Assembly: GCA_022870745.1 (NCBI GenBank)
Contig: CP085323.1
Coordinates: 3,720,001-3,784,000, forward strand
Source of the DNA: Silvibacterium acidisoli
Lineage (GTDB): Bacteria > Acidobacteriota > Terriglobia > Terriglobales > Acidobacteriaceae
DNA length: 64,000 nt
Reading direction: 5' to 3'
Shown: positions 17,557 through 23,341 of the stretch, one piece after another
Numbering within the stretch: position 1 is the stretch's first letter
Layout: each line of letters starts with the position of its first letter
Notes under the pieces: model-generated
Databases searched by the model: none
The model's input: only the letters and a program-made list of their open reading frames with translations
What the model was told of the DNA's origin: nothing
Program-made: the position numbers and the translations under genes

Positions 17557-19284
17557 TTACTTCGCCGGATAATCCGTGACCTTCGGCGTCACACGCGGAT
17601 TCATCTTCGTGGCTCCGCCGGTGTTGTTGATCACGTTGCTGATCTCGCCGTGATTGCCAAGCGCCACAGTGATCATGTGATGAAACTTCACCTCCGGCTT
17701 CTGCGGAACTTCAATCGCATGCCCCAGCTTTACGTTCGGATGTGTGAAGACGCTATAGATACCCAGTCCCCACGCCTCGTGGCTAGTCACCTTGTCATCG
17801 ACCTTGTAAGAAGCCCACCCATCCGCATTGCCGCCGCTGGTAAACATGTACTGCGCAGGCGGATCGTAGGGAATCTCCGACTGATAGAAATATGTGCGCC
17901 CGTGATTGCCGTTCCAAAGCACCTGGAAGCCCTGGTGATGCTCAACGAAGAGACCATAAATCGTTACGTAGTCTGCGTTCACGACCAAACCATTGTCGCT
18001 GACGTTGCTGATCCAGCCCACGCCCTTGCCATGATCCGCACGCCAGATCCAGGTGTGATCGACGATGGTGTCGCGGCTGTTGATCTCGAGATTTTCGGTT
18101 ACGCGGCCAATCCCCGCGCCACCTACGCGAAAGAACACATCGTGCAGAGAGATGGGATTCTTCGTATGAACAGCCTTACTCTTCTGCGGGCCAATCTGTA
18201 ACAGATACGGTGACTTGGTAGGACCGCCATCGAAGAGAATGCCTGCAACGATGATGCCGTCCACGTCCGCGGTCGTCATCGCAGCCTTGCCCTTCATCGG
18301 CTTGAGGGTCGCGAATCCAAGACCCATCACTACTGCGTCAGGCCGCTTCACTTCAATCGGTTCGTCGAGTTCGTAAATGCCCGGAGTCAGCAGCAGGTCT
18401 TTGCCCTTGGCCAGCGCAGCATTGATCGTTGCAGCCGAATCGTGTCCTGCCTTCGCGATGTAGAAATGGCTCAGAGGAATGGAGTGGCCTGGAGTTGCGC
18501 CGTTATGCCATGAAATCCCCGCGCTTTCGTGCTGCATCGAAGGCACGCGCACGCTCCATGCCCCGGCCCTGTCCATTTCAAGGAACGGTTTCTCACGAAC
18601 GACCGGAGTCTTGTCGATCTTTGTATAGGGAGGCTGCGGCCACTCGCCCTGCGGTTGCTGCGGAACACCGACGAAGACCATATTCCAGTTCGAGCCGGTC
18701 CAGCTGTGCCACTCGCTGTTGCGCGAGATCCACTGCTGTTGCGTGCCGGAATCGACATTGCCGTCGGTCAGTGAGTCGGACATCCATCCGCCGCTCGCCC
18801 AGCCATGATTCTGATGCAGCACCAGGTTGCCCTTCACATGCATGCGGCGAAAGGGAACTGCCTGCGACACCGCCCACTGCATCGTTCCGCTCGAAGGCGA
18901 GACCGCAATGCCCTCGATCGCACGCCAGAAGGTTGTGGTGGCGTTGTTATTCGGCTCGCTCGCATCCGCATGCACATTGCCTGAGATATGCACCGCATCC
19001 GGAGTCGCACCCGCGCCAATCACCTCGGTGTAGAAACCAACTGGAACGTCGAGCTTGTAGTCGCCCGGCAGAAACACAAATGCATTCCGCTGCGGACCGA
19101 ACTCGTTATGCTGCTGCACGGCATAAGCGGCATTGATCTTCGCCTGCATCGCTGCCTGCGGCATCTTCGGGTCGAAGATCGCTACGTTCGGGCCGAAGTC
19201 CGGGGTCGCAGCCGCAAACACGGACAGAGGTGCGGCAGCAAGCAAAGCAGAGAGACAAATCGTTTGTCTCAGGCGGTTTCTCAT
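17557..19284 (-). CDS. Secreted right-handed beta-helix protein, putative polysaccharide-active
   Basis: 575 aa. A signal peptide (ICLSALLAAAPLSVFA) is followed by a pectate-lyase-like beta-helix architecture. Visible blocks are FVFLPGDYKLDVPVGFYTEV near the N-terminus, LLLTPGIYELDEPIEVKRP in the middle, and IIVAGILFDGG plus TIVDHTWIWRADHG in the C-terminal coils. Such paired beta-helix starts occur in GH55-like and pectate-lyase-superfamily proteins. I cannot assign a substrate or catalytic residues. The start is ATG 19284, with GGAG 6 nt before; a GTG one codon upstream is possible. It is close to the GxGYxYP gene, another exported carbohydrate-related protein. Confidence 0.72.
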   Translation of the reverse strand: MRNRLRQTICLSALLAAAPLSVFAAATPDFGPNVAIFDPKMPQAAMQAKINAAYAVQQHNEFGPQRNAFVFLPGDYKLDVPVGFYTEVIGAGATPDAVHISGNVHADASEPNNNATTTFWRAIEGIAVSPSSGTMQWAVSQAVPFRRMHVKGNLVLHQNHGWASGGWMSDSLTDGNVDSGTQQQWISRNSEWHSWTGSNWNMVFVGVPQQPQGEWPQPPYTKIDKTPVVREKPFLEMDRAGAWSVRVPSMQHESAGISWHNGATPGHSIPLSHFYIAKAGHDSAATINAALAKGKDLLLTPGIYELDEPIEVKRPDAVVMGLGFATLKPMKGKAAMTTADVDGIIVAGILFDGGPTKSPYLLQIGPQKSKAVHTKNPISLHDVFFRVGGAGIGRVTENLEINSRDTIVDHTWIWRADHGKGVGWISNVSDNGLVVNADYVTIYGLFVEHHQGFQVLWNGNHGRTYFYQSEIPYDPPAQYMFTSGGNADGWASYKVDDKVTSHEAWGLGIYSVFTHPNVKLGHAIEVPQKPEVKFHHMITVALGNHGEISNVINNTGGATKMNPRVTPKVTDYPAK

Positions 19285-19339
19285 CACGGGCTCCAGGTCT
19301 TTCTAAAGAAATCTCTCTATGTCTATCCTGTTCGTGCCG

Positions 19340-19424: not shown

Positions 19425-20399
19425 TTAAGTGGCGCGTTTATTCCATGTGCGGCTGTGTCGGCGCATTCCACGCCGATGAATAGCCCTGGGAGCATAGGCC
19501 CATTGGCGAACCGGTCCCACATCGATGTGGACGAACTGGCTAGCCGGGTAGTAGCCGACGCCGCCGGCATGAAGCGACAACGCCGCGTCGCGCAGGTTGC
19601 TCGCCGAGACGCCGGGCACGCGAATGTCCAGCGCTTTCGCCACGATGTGCTGCGAATGCAGCGCCGCATTGGTGCCACCCTCCGCGCGCAGCATGTCATT
19701 CGTTTCCTGGCTGCGGAAACCGGAGAGGATGTTGACGGCATCTCCCGAGTGATTCACTTCGGCGAGGATGGTGTGCAGTACATCGAACGTACGGGGATCG
19801 TAGCTTGCCACCGTACCGTTGTGGCTGTCGCGCAGGAAGGCGTTTAGCGAATCCAGGGCCTGCGGAATATAGACGTCGCCGATGCGATACACCACATCGA
19901 TGCTCTGATCGTCGTTCGACCGTGTGAGCCGCAGTTCGTAACGTGTTCCGTCGGTGGGAACATATTCCTGGCTCAAGGGAGGTATTCCCGCTTCGGGAAG
20001 AGGAATGGCTAGGAATCGGTGAGCCAGAGTCCGGAAGCGGCCATGCTTATGAACCTTCAGAACACGCGCGCCCGCATCATTCGCGATGAAAAGAGCGGTC
20101 AGAGCCGTGGCTCCCAGGAATACGCCTTTCAGCAGGCGGGTATTGACTCGCCGAAAAAGGGGAGCGAGCGGAGCCGATTCGGTAATTCTCTGCCAGGAAA
20201 AATTCAAAACGCGATATCCAATTGGGGATTTGGCAACCGTTATCTTTCCAATGTATTCAAAGCGGCGCGCAAATCGCAAGAGGTAATCGTCATTTAAGTA
20301 TGCGAATCGACATGCGCCAGAAATCGGTGCGTGTCTGATACCAAGGCGACTGCTCCACAGCTCACTGGACAACAACGCACACCCCACTACAGCGATCAT
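19425..20399 (-). CDS. DUF882/MepK-like M15 peptidase, membrane-anchored
   Basis: Up to 324 aa. The C-terminal ~180 residues match the YcbK/MepK (DUF882) group of M15 zinc peptidases that cut peptidoglycan cross-links. Likely zinc ligands are the His of SQHIVAKALDIRVPG with its Asp, and the His of FVHIDVGPVR. The ILSGFRSQETNDMLR block is also typical. A single hydrophobic helix (LLKGVFLGATALTALFIA) lies near residue 95 and probably acts as signal or anchor, so the true start is likely downstream of 20399, for instance at a TTG before the NFSWQR segment. I could not find a clear ribosome-binding site. The arginine-rich C-terminus is unusual. Confidence 0.8.
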   Translation of the reverse strand: MIAVVGCALLSSELWSSRLGIRHAPISGACRFAYLNDDYLLRFARRFEYIGKITVAKSPIGYRVLNFSWQRITESAPLAPLFRRVNTRLLKGVFLGATALTALFIANDAGARVLKVHKHGRFRTLAHRFLAIPLPEAGIPPLSQEYVPTDGTRYELRLTRSNDDQSIDVVYRIGDVYIPQALDSLNAFLRDSHNGTVASYDPRTFDVLHTILAEVNHSGDAVNILSGFRSQETNDMLRAEGGTNAALHSQHIVAKALDIRVPGVSASNLRDAALSLHAGGVGYYPASQFVHIDVGPVRQWAYAPRAIHRRGMRRHSRTWNKRAT

Positions 20400-20515: not shown

Positions 20516-21823
20516 ATGTTCTGCGAAGCGATGGGCGTAGAGACAATGCAATCTCAAACGGACTCGCTGGATGCGTTTCCATGTGGCCTAACTTTAGGTG
20601 CGCCGCTACCTCCAACCGTCCTGCGGGCGGTGGAACGAGAGTTGAACCTTCGTCACGCAAAATGGGATACACGCGTGGGAAATGTTTCTGTTCTCTCGCC
20701 AGAACCGGTGCTGATGCATAACCGGGAATGGCGGTGGCTATGCAGACAGGCGGAAAGTGCTAGTCGTGAGCTGCTTGCCTTGGAACAGGAAATTGTTGGC
20801 CGCAACGACCTCCAGGAGTTGCTTGGCATTCCAGTAAATCTAAGGCGATTGTTGCAGGGGAAATCGCAGGAAGCTCGCCCCGTCGTCCGAGCATTCCGCT
20901 TCGATTTCCACCCTACGGCCAAAGGCTGGATGCTCTCGGAAGTTAACAGTGACGTACCGGGAGGGTATGGGGAAGCCTCAACTTTAACAAGCCTGTATGG
21001 CCAACATTCAAGTGGACTAGTCGCGCCGCCGGATCCTCTCGTAATTTGGGCAGATGCTGTCGAATCGGTAGCGATGGGCAAAGTAGTTGCGCTGCTGTAT
21101 GCGCCCGGATTCATGGAGGACGAGCAGGTCGTACGCTCGCAGGCGAAGGAACTAGGGCGCCGCGGCTTTCAGACCTACCTCATTCAAAGTCCCTTCGCTT
21201 TGAAGTGGAACCGCGGACGCGCAGTGCTACGTAAATCGCCTGCGACAGCCATTGATATCCTTGTCCGGTTTTACCAAGTGGAGTGGCTTACCCAGTTGCC
21301 GGTGTGGACCGGGTGGAAGGGGATGTTTCATGGCGGAAATGACACACTGGTCTTGAATCCCGTTGTTTCTGCCATCTCCGAAAGCAAACGTCTCCCGCTT
21401 TGCTGGCCTTATGTGTCAGAACGAGCATCGGCATTTCGAGATCTTCTGCCGGAAACCTGCGAGCCGGCCAATATTGTGGGGATGACACGAGAGGACTGGG
21501 TTCTGAAGGCTGCGTACTCCAACACGGGAGACGATGTTCACCTCGGTGCTTCCAAGACGGCTTACGAGTGGTCAAATCTGCTCGGCAACGCGGTGCGTCA
21601 GCCTCGTCGCTGGGTCGCCCAACGTCGATTCGATACGTCAGAACTTTGTTCAAAGGGCGGGTTGGTGAAACCGTGCGTAGGGGTTTATGTCATTAATGGC
21701 TGCGCAGCGGGTGCTTACGTCAGGCTGTCGCGGAGACAGGTCACGGATGGATATGCGCTGGAGGCCCCGTTGTTTTTGTCGGATTTTGAGGAGGACGGTT
21801 GGATCGCGAACAGGCTTGGATGA
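20516..21823 (+). CDS. Glutathionylspermidine-synthase-like ATP-grasp ligase
   Basis: 435 aa. The N-terminal part (about 45-160) contains the family's substrate/ATP region with FRFDFHP near 128 and LSEVNSDVPGG near 142, the Asp and Glu-x-Asn residues typical of the GSP_synth (YgiC/YjfC) ATP-grasp fold. A later block, DWVLKAAYSNTGDDVHLG, is the phosphate-binding Lys region. Family knowledge: these enzymes join a carboxylate to an amine through an acyl phosphate. No amidase domain is present, unlike E. coli Gss. The next gene overlaps its end by 25 bp. Base composition is visibly AT-richer than neighbours. Several ATG starts (20516, 20531, 20546) are possible. Substrates are unknown. Confidence 0.75.
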   Translation: MFCEAMGVETMQSQTDSLDAFPCGLTLGAPLPPTVLRAVERELNLRHAKWDTRVGNVSVLSPEPVLMHNREWRWLCRQAESASRELLALEQEIVGRNDLQELLGIPVNLRRLLQGKSQEARPVVRAFRFDFHPTAKGWMLSEVNSDVPGGYGEASTLTSLYGQHSSGLVAPPDPLVIWADAVESVAMGKVVALLYAPGFMEDEQVVRSQAKELGRRGFQTYLIQSPFALKWNRGRAVLRKSPATAIDILVRFYQVEWLTQLPVWTGWKGMFHGGNDTLVLNPVVSAISESKRLPLCWPYVSERASAFRDLLPETCEPANIVGMTREDWVLKAAYSNTGDDVHLGASKTAYEWSNLLGNAVRQPRRWVAQRRFDTSELCSKGGLVKPCVGVYVINGCAAGAYVRLSRRQVTDGYALEAPLFLSDFEEDGWIANRLG

Positions 21824-22563
21824 TCTGGGCACCGGAAGAGTCACAGTGGGGTAGGTGGACAAAGCCAGCTTTATTCTCTTTCCTGCCGGAAACTTTGTCG
21901 TCACAAAGCGAACTACCTATCCCAGACTGGTCGGCATTGAGCCAAGGTGATACTGCTGTCCTGGTTGAACTCCCGGGGCCGCAAGCTGTTATCGCAGGAC
22001 TACAGTTCGCAAGGTTCGGCTACAGGCCGATTGCGCTGTTCAATGCAAGTCCCTTCGCACCAGAGATCAAAGTTGCGGGGGACGGTGGCTTTTCAAATCC
22101 GATCGTCGATGTTGCGCGCATAGTGTGGACTATCGAGGGCTATTCGGCCAGTTTGGAGGAAATGCATTTACCGGCTTCTGCACCACCAGCATTTCTTATC
22201 GATGCGAATCGAAGTAGAGGGCCTTTGTTTCCAGGCGCCGGCATGTTCGATAATCGCTCCGTTGTTTGGGAAACGGATCTGCCGGAGGCCGAGGATTTGC
22301 AGCGGGCTGGTATTCGCCGCGTGGTGCTGGTTCAGACGAATAGGGTCTTTCGATACGATCTGGTCGGGATTCTACTTTCCTGGCAGACAAAAGGTATAGA
22401 GATTACAACTCAGGCGTTCGCGCAGCCGTGGAGTCCGCGAAAGGTCGTGGTCAAAAGCCCAGGCAAAGTTGCTGTCCTGATACGGACGTTCGTGAAATGG
22501 ATCGTCTTCAAGACGAATAGTTTTGGCGCGTTCGGAAATATTGCTCATCCATCCGGAGGATGA
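21799..22563 (+). CDS. Unrecognised partner of the ATP-grasp ligase
   Basis: 254 aa, no family recognised. The start is TTG preceded by GAGGAGG, inside the end of the ligase gene, so translation is coupled. The N-terminal half has strand-helix alternation (DTAVLVELPGPQAVIAGLQF, then GYRPIALFNASPF) that could be a Rossmann-like fold. The segment AGIRRVVLVQTNRVFRYDLVG continues this pattern. The C-terminus is basic and hydrophobic (VKWIVFKTNSFGAFG). No signal peptide or catalytic motif is evident. From position alone it is likely to act with the ligase as second subunit, substrate carrier or downstream enzyme. Confidence 0.7.
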   Translation: MDREQAWMIWAPEESQWGRWTKPALFSFLPETLSSQSELPIPDWSALSQGDTAVLVELPGPQAVIAGLQFARFGYRPIALFNASPFAPEIKVAGDGGFSNPIVDVARIVWTIEGYSASLEEMHLPASAPPAFLIDANRSRGPLFPGAGMFDNRSVVWETDLPEAEDLQRAGIRRVVLVQTNRVFRYDLVGILLSWQTKGIEITTQAFAQPWSPRKVVVKSPGKVAVLIRTFVKWIVFKTNSFGAFGNIAHPSGG

Positions 22564-22572
22564 ACAGCAAAA

Positions 22573-22614
22573 GTGGAAGGCACTATTCGGCTGTCGTTGA
22601 ATTAGTCCTTCCAC
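22573..22614 (+). terminator. Stem-loop after the ATP-grasp cassette
   Basis: GTGGAAGG pairs with CCTTCCAC, extended inward by ACTA/TAGT. It sits 10 bp after the stop. The sequence just after it (CCACCCAAGC ... GGGGC, to about 22634) looks like a decayed copy of the dispersed GGGTGCCCCA-type palindrome. Confidence 0.5.
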
Positions 22615-22642: not shown

Positions 22643-23341
22643 CTAGCGCTCATCCCGATCCGGGGTGAGATGAACGCTTCCTGCACCTACGTTGATCTTG
22701 AGATCGCCGTCGCCGCTTCCGGTCATGTTTTTGGAGATGATGCCGAATGCGCCGTTTCCCTTTGGGCGGTCGTCGCTCAGGTGTCCCACTCCGATGCTGG
22801 TGTCGAGCGTGGCGTAGTCGTGGTCGCCGTCAAGCTCGGCGTAGATAGATCCAGCGCCCAGGTTCAGCTCGCGATTCCCGCGCAGGGCGTGCGCTTTGCA
22901 GCGTAGGGTACCGGCGCCCAGGTTGATTTCGTTCTCCGCCGATGGCTCTGCCCTTGGCAGGTAGAGCGTGACGGTGGCGTGGGCGTCTTTCGGAAACTGC
23001 AGCGTGATTACAGCCTCGCCCTTGTCGACGTTGAGCGTCTGGACGTACGAGCCGAGCGGCTTCTCTGCGCCGGGCGAGTTCACTTCGATATGCAGCCTGT
23101 CGCCCGCCGACGGAGCCAGGCGTAGCTCGCCCTCGCATACGCTCACCCGCAGAGAGTGAAGGCCGGACAACGTACGTTGCACCTCAAACCGCGTTGACGA
23201 GGAGATGTCGCCCGGTTGCGCATGATAGGTCCAGGGAGCATTGTTGTCGGTGCAATGGTGCGAATCCTCGGCGCGGGCGTGTGCGCCGGCGAGGACGAAG
23301 CTGACTATGGCGAGTACCATTTTCAAGTGCGGTTTCCGCAT
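22643..23341 (-). CDS. Secreted DUF4097-like beta-repeat protein
   Basis: 232 aa. A signal peptide (KMVLAIVSFVLAGAHARA) is followed by a region resembling DUF4097-type putative adhesins: VQRTLSGLHSLRVSVCEGEL, then VTLYLPRAEP, and repeating short strands ending in LGAGT, LGAGS, VGVGHL and VGAGSVHL. Such proteins form beta-solenoids of unknown function. Two Cys in the first third could form a disulphide outside the cytoplasm. The ATG has AGGAA about 8 nt upstream. It converges with the ATP-grasp cassette and is divergent from rpsO. Confidence 0.72.
   Translation of the reverse strand: MRKPHLKMVLAIVSFVLAGAHARAEDSHHCTDNNAPWTYHAQPGDISSSTRFEVQRTLSGLHSLRVSVCEGELRLAPSAGDRLHIEVNSPGAEKPLGSYVQTLNVDKGEAVITLQFPKDAHATVTLYLPRAEPSAENEINLGAGTLRCKAHALRGNRELNLGAGSIYAELDGDHDYATLDTSIGVGHLSDDRPKGNGAFGIISKNMTGSGDGDLKINVGAGSVHLTPDRDER

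What the first reader, a model, noticed from the sequence alone, without database searches (positions are those of the whole stretch)
20516..22563. Translationally coupled ATP-grasp ligase and unknown partner in an AT-richer island
Seen: a GSP_synth-type ATP-grasp frame with intact Asp and Glu-x-Asn motifs overlaps by 25 bp a second gene that starts with TTG behind GAGGAGG, followed by a stem-loop. The second protein matches no family I know. Known: GSP_synth enzymes form amide bonds (glutathionylspermidine and relatives). The E. coli enzyme carries its own amidase; this one does not. Inferred: the pair makes a peptide-like or amidated small molecule or modifies a cell component, and was probably acquired.
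Basis: partly seen in the sequence, partly recalled or inferred. Interest (0 to 1): 0.7.

Follow-up and report, generated by a model that had tools for sequence, protein, structure and literature searches.

The report
ATP-grasp ligase with glycine-tailed partner
Two overlapping bacterial genes encode a bond-forming enzyme and a protein of unknown fold that ends in a flexible tail with a final glycine; the same pairing recurs in many bacterial groups, and similar tails sit on unrelated proteins next to relatives of the enzyme, which suggests that the enzyme's job is to attach something to that tail.

Summary
A GSP_synth-type ATP-grasp gene (20516-21823) overlaps by 25 bp a TTG-started gene (21799-22563) whose 254-aa product matches no Pfam or NCBIfam family. 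The pair is a conserved system: in the 80 best of 212 related loci, a homologue of the partner lies beside the ligase in 79 and a YjfL-like (DUF350) membrane protein in 67; the window has the two-gene form and its genome shows no DUF350.

The main new result is the partner's C-terminus: a GGFG-like motif, a variable linker and a final Gly. 71 of 76 complete partners end in Gly, against 43 of 586 background ORFs. Similar tails occur on proteins beside E. coli YgiC and YjfC and, by eye, beside 15 of 16 plasmid-borne relatives, on carriers without detectable similarity to the partner. GSP-type ligases amidate peptide C-terminal glycines (recalled), so I propose that this ligase activates the partner's C-terminal carboxylate and joins it to an amine. 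Reaction and amine are inferred. The partner has a confident predicted fold without a clear PDB match. "Acquired" is plausible from the patchy distribution, not shown. The stem-loop is not a convincing terminator.

The parts
20516..21823 (+). GSP_synth-type (YgiC/YjfC-like) stand-alone ATP-grasp ligase, 435 aa; the start may be the ATG at 20546
   Evidence: PF03738 49.8 bits; predicted fold pLDDT 92.3, best PDB matches YjfC 7uk6 Z 36.8, Gss 2ioa Z 34.6, YgiC 7uk8 Z 34.2; active-site-type residues invariant
21799..22563 (+). Partner, 254 aa, TTG start, no known family; alpha/beta fold plus a C-terminal GAFG-x(7)-G tail
   Evidence: homologue next to the ligase in 79 of 80 loci
22465..22506 (+). 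Codons of the predicted helix (residues 223-236) just before the tail; a membrane-touching role is inference only
   Evidence: secondary structure of the model
22525..22560 (+). Codons of the C-terminal tail GAFGNIAHPSGG; it has no Asp, Glu or Lys, so the alpha-carboxylate is its only carboxylate
   Evidence: sequence; lower pLDDT (76 and 62 in the last two blocks)
21788..21794 (+). GAGGAGG, likely ribosome-binding site of the partner
   Evidence: sequence
22573..22614 (.). Inverted repeat GTGGAAGG/CCTTCCAC with 26 nt between the arms; not a convincing terminator for the pair

Best explanation
The two genes form an enzyme-substrate pair. The ATP-grasp protein phosphorylates the C-terminal carboxylate of the partner's flexible tail (GAFGNIAHPSGG in the window) and passes the acyl group to an amine, giving a partner protein with an amidated C-terminus, much as glutathionylspermidine synthetase activates the Gly carboxylate of glutathione. 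The GGFG-like motif is the likely recognition element and the linker lets the end reach the active site. In most relatives a DUF350 membrane protein joins the pair; the window has the minimal form. Shown here: conserved pairing, family and fold of the ligase, the tail and its near-constant final Gly, and the same kind of tail on unrelated neighbours of related ligases. Inferred: that the tail is the substrate, that the alpha-carboxylate is the reacting group, the identity of the amine (polyamine, aminopropyl compound or other), and a role at the envelope.
For: Partner beside the ligase in 79 of 80 loci, six of the partners cut by a contig end, also in altered gene order (L021 DUF350-partner-ligase, L087 partner-DUF350-ligase). 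71 of 76 complete partners end in Gly against 43 of 586 background ORFs; G[FYW]G-x(2-32)-G at the end in 61 of 76 against 0 of 586, although the motif-to-end distance varies, 7-25 residues in all but one. Similar tails on YgiB and YjfM, the neighbours of E. coli ygiC and yjfC, and, by eye, near 15 of 16 plasmid-borne ligase genes fetched (158 records matched). In those 18 regions the strict pattern fits 10 of 198 ORFs: nine are the ligase's neighbour, one is an antisense ORF. Of the 17 tail-bearing neighbours, ten are DUF1190-type (by annotation or BLAST); the other seven show no full-length similarity to them, and none of the 17 hits the partner profile. By the script's motif choice 15 of 17 neighbour tails, and 11 of 11 long Acidobacteriota tails, have no Asp or Glu, so there the C-terminal carboxylate is the only one in the tail. 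The ligase fold is that of YjfC, YgiC and Gss; the K-12 annotation calls YgiC and YjfC peptide-spermidine ligases.
Against: No biochemical evidence. 5 of 76 partners end in Ser, Ala or His, and 4 of 17 neighbour proteins in Ala or Ser. 53 of 76 partner tails do contain Asp or Glu. 13 of 17 neighbour proteins match a lipobox-like pattern, so they are probably exported, while the ligase needs cytosolic ATP. One ligase (Azospirillum, L102) has no such neighbour. In 6 of 13 other Acidobacteriota genomes with the partner domain the ligase lies elsewhere in the genome; in two genomes where only a C-terminal fragment of the partner was found (G769; G646, 85% complete, fragment at a contig start) no ligase was found. 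The partner's well-folded core with invariant D, N and R residues would also suit an enzyme. The window's genome has no AdoMet_dc match and one partial Spermine_synth match, so spermidine may not be the amine.
Confidence: 0.6

Rival explanations
1. The partner is an enzyme or binding protein of a small-molecule pathway (for example peptide-polyamine conjugates); the ATP-grasp acts on a free peptide and the tail only docks the two proteins together.
For: The partner has a confident alpha/beta core and 15 invariant positions in 69 rows, among them D135, R138, D151, N152, R153, D160 and D187; the family's known substrates are small peptides (recalled for glutathione; the name 'peptide-spermidine ligase').
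Against: A docking role does not by itself explain a near-constant final Gly at varying distance from the motif, nor the same tail on carriers that do not hit the partner profile. No enzyme fold was recognised, which is weak evidence.
Confidence: 0.2
2. The ligase extends the tail by amino acids or a peptide, or joins the tail through its C-terminal Gly to another macromolecule (ubiquitin- or Pup-like conjugation).
For: A C-terminal Gly after a flexible linker is what conjugated modifiers have (general knowledge); the partner could be the modifier.
Against: No target protein is evident beside the pair; DUF350, the only other recurrent neighbour, was not found in 13 of 80 loci. The closest solved folds are amine and glutathione ligases.
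Confidence: 0.12
3. The tail is a ribosomal precursor peptide that is modified and cut off (graspetide-like product).
For: ATP-grasp next to a conserved C-terminal segment.
Against: 15 of 17 neighbour tails and 23 of 76 partner tails, the window's among them, have no Asp or Glu for side-chain crosslinks. The ligase fold is far from the RimK type (RimK Z 8.8 against YjfC Z 36.8). Besides the three families, no ORF cluster recurs in more than 8 of the 80 loci (the others were not annotated).
Confidence: 0.04
4. The tail is a surface or membrane-binding low-complexity segment unrelated to the ligase reaction.
For: Gly/Ser/Tyr/Arg-rich make-up in many members; predicted helix just before it; DUF350 and lipoproteins are membrane-linked.
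Against: The strict tail pattern fits 0 of 586 background ORFs in the same loci, and 9 of 10 pattern hits in other lineages are the ligase's neighbour.
Confidence: 0.04

Closest known systems
E. coli YgiC and YjfC (peptide-spermidine ligases, PF03738) with YgiB/YjfM (DUF1190) and YjfL (DUF350)
   Same: Ligase fold (Z 34.2 and 36.8), active-site-type residues, adjacent protein with a GGFG or GGYG tail ending in GG, DUF350 in most relatives
   Different: 16% identity and a separate, fully supported branch; partner has no DUF1190 match and its profile finds none of the DUF1190-type proteins; no DUF350 in the window's genome
E. coli glutathionylspermidine synthetase/amidase (Gss)
   Same: Synthetase-domain fold (2ioa Z 34.6); its chemistry activates a peptide C-terminal Gly (recalled)
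   Different: No amidase domain here; a linked protein partner instead
PspA-linked operons with YjfL, DUF1190 and a GSP-like ATP-grasp (PMC11237479; section 19 and passages read)
   Same: YjfL and ligase in one operon with a further protein; that paper links such operons to membrane dynamics and polyamine metabolism
   Different: The parts I read do not describe this partner family or a shared tail; DUF1190 is there called a metal-chelating lipoprotein
Ubiquitin/Pup-type modifiers (recalled)
   Same: Flexible C-terminal end whose carboxylate would be activated
   Different: Different activating enzyme class; no target known here

Membership tests
GSP_synth (PF03738) | Pfam score above cut-off | tested here: met
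   49.8 against 29.3 bits
GSP_synth (PF03738) | Conserved Arg, Asp, Glu, Asn, Lys residues shared with YgiC and YjfC | tested here: met
   R118, D120, E132, N134, K321 and R393 (numbered from 20546) invariant in 61 rows; their catalytic roles are recalled
GSP_synth (PF03738) | Glutathionylspermidine synthetase fold | tested here: met
   2ioa Z 34.6, YjfC 7uk6 Z 36.8
Bifunctional Gss | Amidase domain | tested here: not met
   Pfam scan shows GSP_synth and a sub-threshold ATP-grasp overlap only
YgiC/YjfC peptide-spermidine ligases | Amide formation between a peptide and spermidine | not testable with these tools
   No assay; the paper describing it is not held
YgiBC / yjf operon type | DUF1190 neighbour | tested here: not met
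   No Pfam hit for the partner; the partner profile finds none of the 17 neighbour proteins, ten of them DUF1190-type
YgiBC / yjf operon type | DUF350 (YjfL) neighbour | tested here: not met
   None beside the pair or, by PF03994, in the genome; found in 67 of 80 related loci
Trio YjfL-ATP-grasp-partner (this report) | Partner homologue with terminal tail next to the ligase | tested here: met
Any known fold for the partner | Clear structural match in PDB | tested here: inconclusive
   Foldseek best E 0.014, TM 0.27; VIA best Z 5.2, 112 residues, 3.9 A

The most novel reading that the evidence does not exclude
YgiC/YjfC-type ATP-grasp ligases across bacteria, and some archaea if the metagenome bins are right, are dedicated protein C-terminus modifiers: each acts on a genetically linked carrier of unrelated fold that has acquired a GGFG-x(n)-G tail, so the tail is a portable substrate tag. 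The window pair is a minimal, DUF350-free version with a new carrier family, and YgiB and YjfM are the E. coli substrates.
Probability: 0.5. Interest if true: 0.86.

Novelty: new variant of a known kind. Interest (0 to 1): 0.74.

Why it matters
YgiC and YjfC belong to a widespread ligase family annotated as peptide-spermidine ligases; their substrates in the cell appear to be unsettled (my reading; the defining paper was not available). A shared C-terminal tail on their neighbours names candidate substrates, links them to DUF350 membrane proteins and envelope stress operons, and would define a bacterial protein C-terminal amidation system. It can be tested at once in E. coli K-12.

Tried and rejected
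Single-sequence searches gave little: the partner in genome contigs, none; plasmids and phages, none for either protein; viral contigs, none with A1; the ligase in 100 related genomes, only itself. Profiles were needed. These tools say that records of the window's own genome or near ones may be left out.

A solute-binding protein upstream of the ligase in L010 was considered as a third partner and dropped: I saw it in that locus only. Weak Foldseek rows for SUMO E1, ThiF-like and MccB folds (best E 0.014) were not taken as homology. The terminator reading of the stem-loop was rejected. Acquisition by empty-site comparison failed: in the 16 kb of G001 that I fetched, only the M15 peptidase of the seven window genes tried was found. 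Literature: no held paper has both ATP-grasp and GGFG; 6 hold YgiB and YgiC (listing only); DUF1190 is in 2; DUF350 with ATP-grasp in 2; passages of PMC12568646 and PMC4431377 were seen, and PMC8939145 held none of six terms tried. A 2009 amidoligase survey that I recall by title was looked for and not read, so prior description of the tail cannot be excluded.

Rows dropped or limited: 132 of the 212 relatives were not returned. The fold alignments hold 69 (partner) and 58 (ligase) rows, the window included, chosen from the 80 loci. The 16 plasmid regions were chosen by me for diversity from 60 listed of 158 records. The profiles were built from the same loci, so presence there tests adjacency, not independent discovery. 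Background ORFs are mechanical ORFs, some surely not genes. In one search the tails of L092 and L099 were cut at an early motif by the script, and the tail likeness of L097, L099, L103, L104 and L106 rests on my eye, not on the strict pattern.

Full report
1. The observation. The window holds an ATP-grasp gene (20516-21823) and, overlapping its end by 25 bp, a TTG-started gene (21799-22563) behind GAGGAGG. The first product matches PF03738 (49.8 bits, cut-off 29.3), the second no Pfam or NCBIfam family. Relatives begin at the codon equivalent to the TTG, so that start is credible; the ligase may start at the ATG at 20546. The pair is 54.9% GC against a window mean of 58.9% (SD 2.3). The stem-loop after the pair is an 8-bp repeat with 26 nt between the arms and is not listed by the terminator scan; a T run follows it only on the minus strand, on which the convergent gene at 22643-23341 is read.

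2. The ligase. The predicted structure (58-row alignment, pLDDT 92.3) matches E. coli YjfC (7uk6, Z 36.8, 372 residues, 3.5 A), Gss (2ioa, Z 34.6) and YgiC (7uk8, Z 34.2). A profile of the family finds YgiC (E 7.6e-14), YjfC (6e-8) and Gss (3.6e-6) among PDB sequences. Arg, Asp, Glu, Asn and Lys residues of the active-site type are invariant when YgiC and YjfC are added. There is no amidase domain.

3. A conserved system. A scan of genome contigs with the ligase alignment gave 212 relatives, of which the best 80 were returned, labelled Acidobacteriota, Verrucomicrobiota, Myxococcota, Planctomycetota, Bacillota, Spirochaetota, Synergistota, Elusimicrobiota, Bathyarchaeota and others, mostly metagenome bins. 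Clustering of ORFs showed three recurrent families; no other cluster lies in more than 8 loci. With profiles built from them, the partner lies beside the ligase in 79 of 80 loci (not found in L058; six are cut by a contig end) and a third gene is found in 67 of 80. Four of four sampled third-gene proteins match DUF350 (PF03994), three of them above its cut-off. The usual order is DUF350, ligase, partner; L021 and L087 differ, so the link is not mere fixed order. Ligase and partner distances agree (Mantel r 0.88, n 72), as do ligase and DUF350 (0.92, n 59) and partner and DUF350 (0.91, n 59), with 0 of 999 permutations as high in each. The window, its nearest relatives L010 and L011 (joined with it at 100/100 in the ligase tree) and the four Polyangiaceae rows show no DUF350 beside the ligase; the window's genome has no PF03994 match at all.

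4. Starting from the partner instead. A single-sequence search found it in 4 of 397 genomes of the order, the window's own included; in the three others the ligase is adjacent. A profile search found it in 14 of 396 genomes of the phylum. Of the 13 other than the window's, six have the ligase adjacent (in one divergently), six have a ligase-profile match elsewhere in the genome, and one (G769), with only a C-terminal fragment of the partner, has none. A further genome of the class, G646, has a C-terminal fragment at a contig start and no ligase found. Eleven of these are longer proteins; 6 of 11 match a TAT-like pattern, one (L144) starts like a lipoprotein by eye, and 10 of 11 end in Gly, for example SGSFGRGGFGFG.

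5. The tail. In the partner family the fold ends in a helix followed by a GGFG-like motif, a variable linker and a final Gly. Of 82 loci with a partner (window included, L008 left out), 76 have a complete 3' end: 71 of these end in Gly (the rest: 3 Ser, 1 His, 1 Ala), against 43 of 586 background ORFs from the same loci. The pattern G[FYW]G-x(2-32)-G at the very end fits 61 of 76 partners and 0 of 586 background ORFs, a looser one 71 of 76 and 2 of 586. The distance from motif to end varies, 7 to 25 residues in all but one, so what is kept is the end itself.

6. The same tail on unrelated proteins. E. coli K-12 ygiC is preceded by ygiB, whose product ends [27 protein letters not shown], and yjfC by yjfM, ending GGYGRSSSARGHWGG. 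A search of plasmids with YgiC gave 158 records; I fetched 16 regions chosen for diversity. In 15 of 16 a neighbour with a comparable tail is present by eye, the exception being Azospirillum; some of these depart from the strict motif (GGLT in L099, GIG in L103 and L106; final Ala or Ser in L097, L098, L103 and L104). By the strict pattern alone, 10 of 198 ORFs in the 18 regions fit, nine of them the ligase's neighbour and one an antisense ORF. The 17 tail-bearing neighbours fall into a group of ten (DUF1190-type, by annotation or BLAST) and seven others: L097 is similar to YjfM only over a 45-residue stretch at the C-terminal side, L103 and L106 are alike over 59 residues, L098, L099, L104 and L105 show no hit; none hits the partner profile. 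15 of 17 tails have no Asp or Glu after the motif as the script found it, and 13 of 17 end in Gly.

7. Mechanism proposed. GSP-type ATP-grasp enzymes activate the carboxylate of a C-terminal Gly (glutathione in Gss; recalled) and join it to an amine; the K-12 annotation names YgiC and YjfC peptide-spermidine ligases. The linked carriers offer a C-terminal Gly on a flexible tail, often as the only carboxylate of the tail; the window's tail, GAFGNIAHPSGG, is one of these. The simplest account is that the carrier's C-terminus is the substrate. The amine is unknown: the window's genome shows no AdoMet_dc match and one partial Spermine_synth match. PMC11237479 (section 19 and passages read) describes YjfL, DUF1190 and GSP-like ATP-grasp in PspA operons and proposes polyamine-linked membrane dynamics; the parts I read do not mention this partner or a shared tail.

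8. What speaks against it. Nothing biochemical was tested. Some tails end in Ser, Ala or His. 53 of 76 partner tails do contain Asp or Glu. 13 of 17 neighbour proteins match a lipobox-like pattern and would have to be modified before or during export. The partner core (model pLDDT 89.9) has no clear PDB match and keeps invariant polar residues, so it could be an enzyme in its own right. Prior description of the tail outside the held library cannot be excluded (searches).

9. Verdict. A real, widespread gene pair with a protein family new to Pfam and NCBIfam and a portable C-terminal tail, which makes a specific, quickly testable prediction about a known ligase family.

Noticed in passing
window 19425-20399 (-): M15-type peptidase (PF05951, 132.9 bits), below the NCBIfam MepK cut-off (151.5 against 185 bits).
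   Followed up: partly
window 22643-23341 (-): Protein with a signal-peptide-like start (by eye) and no Pfam or NCBIfam hit; found only in the window's own genome among 9 genus genomes.
   Followed up: partly
window 17557-19287 (-): 576-aa protein with a signal-peptide-like start (by eye) and no significant family match.
   Followed up: no
L133, L134, L136-L138, L140: Long anchored versions of the partner with a Tyr/Pro/Arg/Gly-rich region before the tail and no ligase match in the fetched stretch; a ligase match lies elsewhere in each genome.
   Followed up: partly
L071 9128-10387, L084 9150-10121: Oscillospiraceae partners without a DUF350 hit beside them; L071 carries hydrophobic segments and both end in long Gly-rich tails finishing in GG.
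   Followed up: partly
L101 3926-6276: Roseomonas plasmid with two tandem GSP_synth genes followed by DUF350 and DUF1190.
   Followed up: no
window genome (G000): No AdoMet decarboxylase (PF02675) match and one partial spermidine-synthase-type match, so its polyamine route is unclear.
   Followed up: partly
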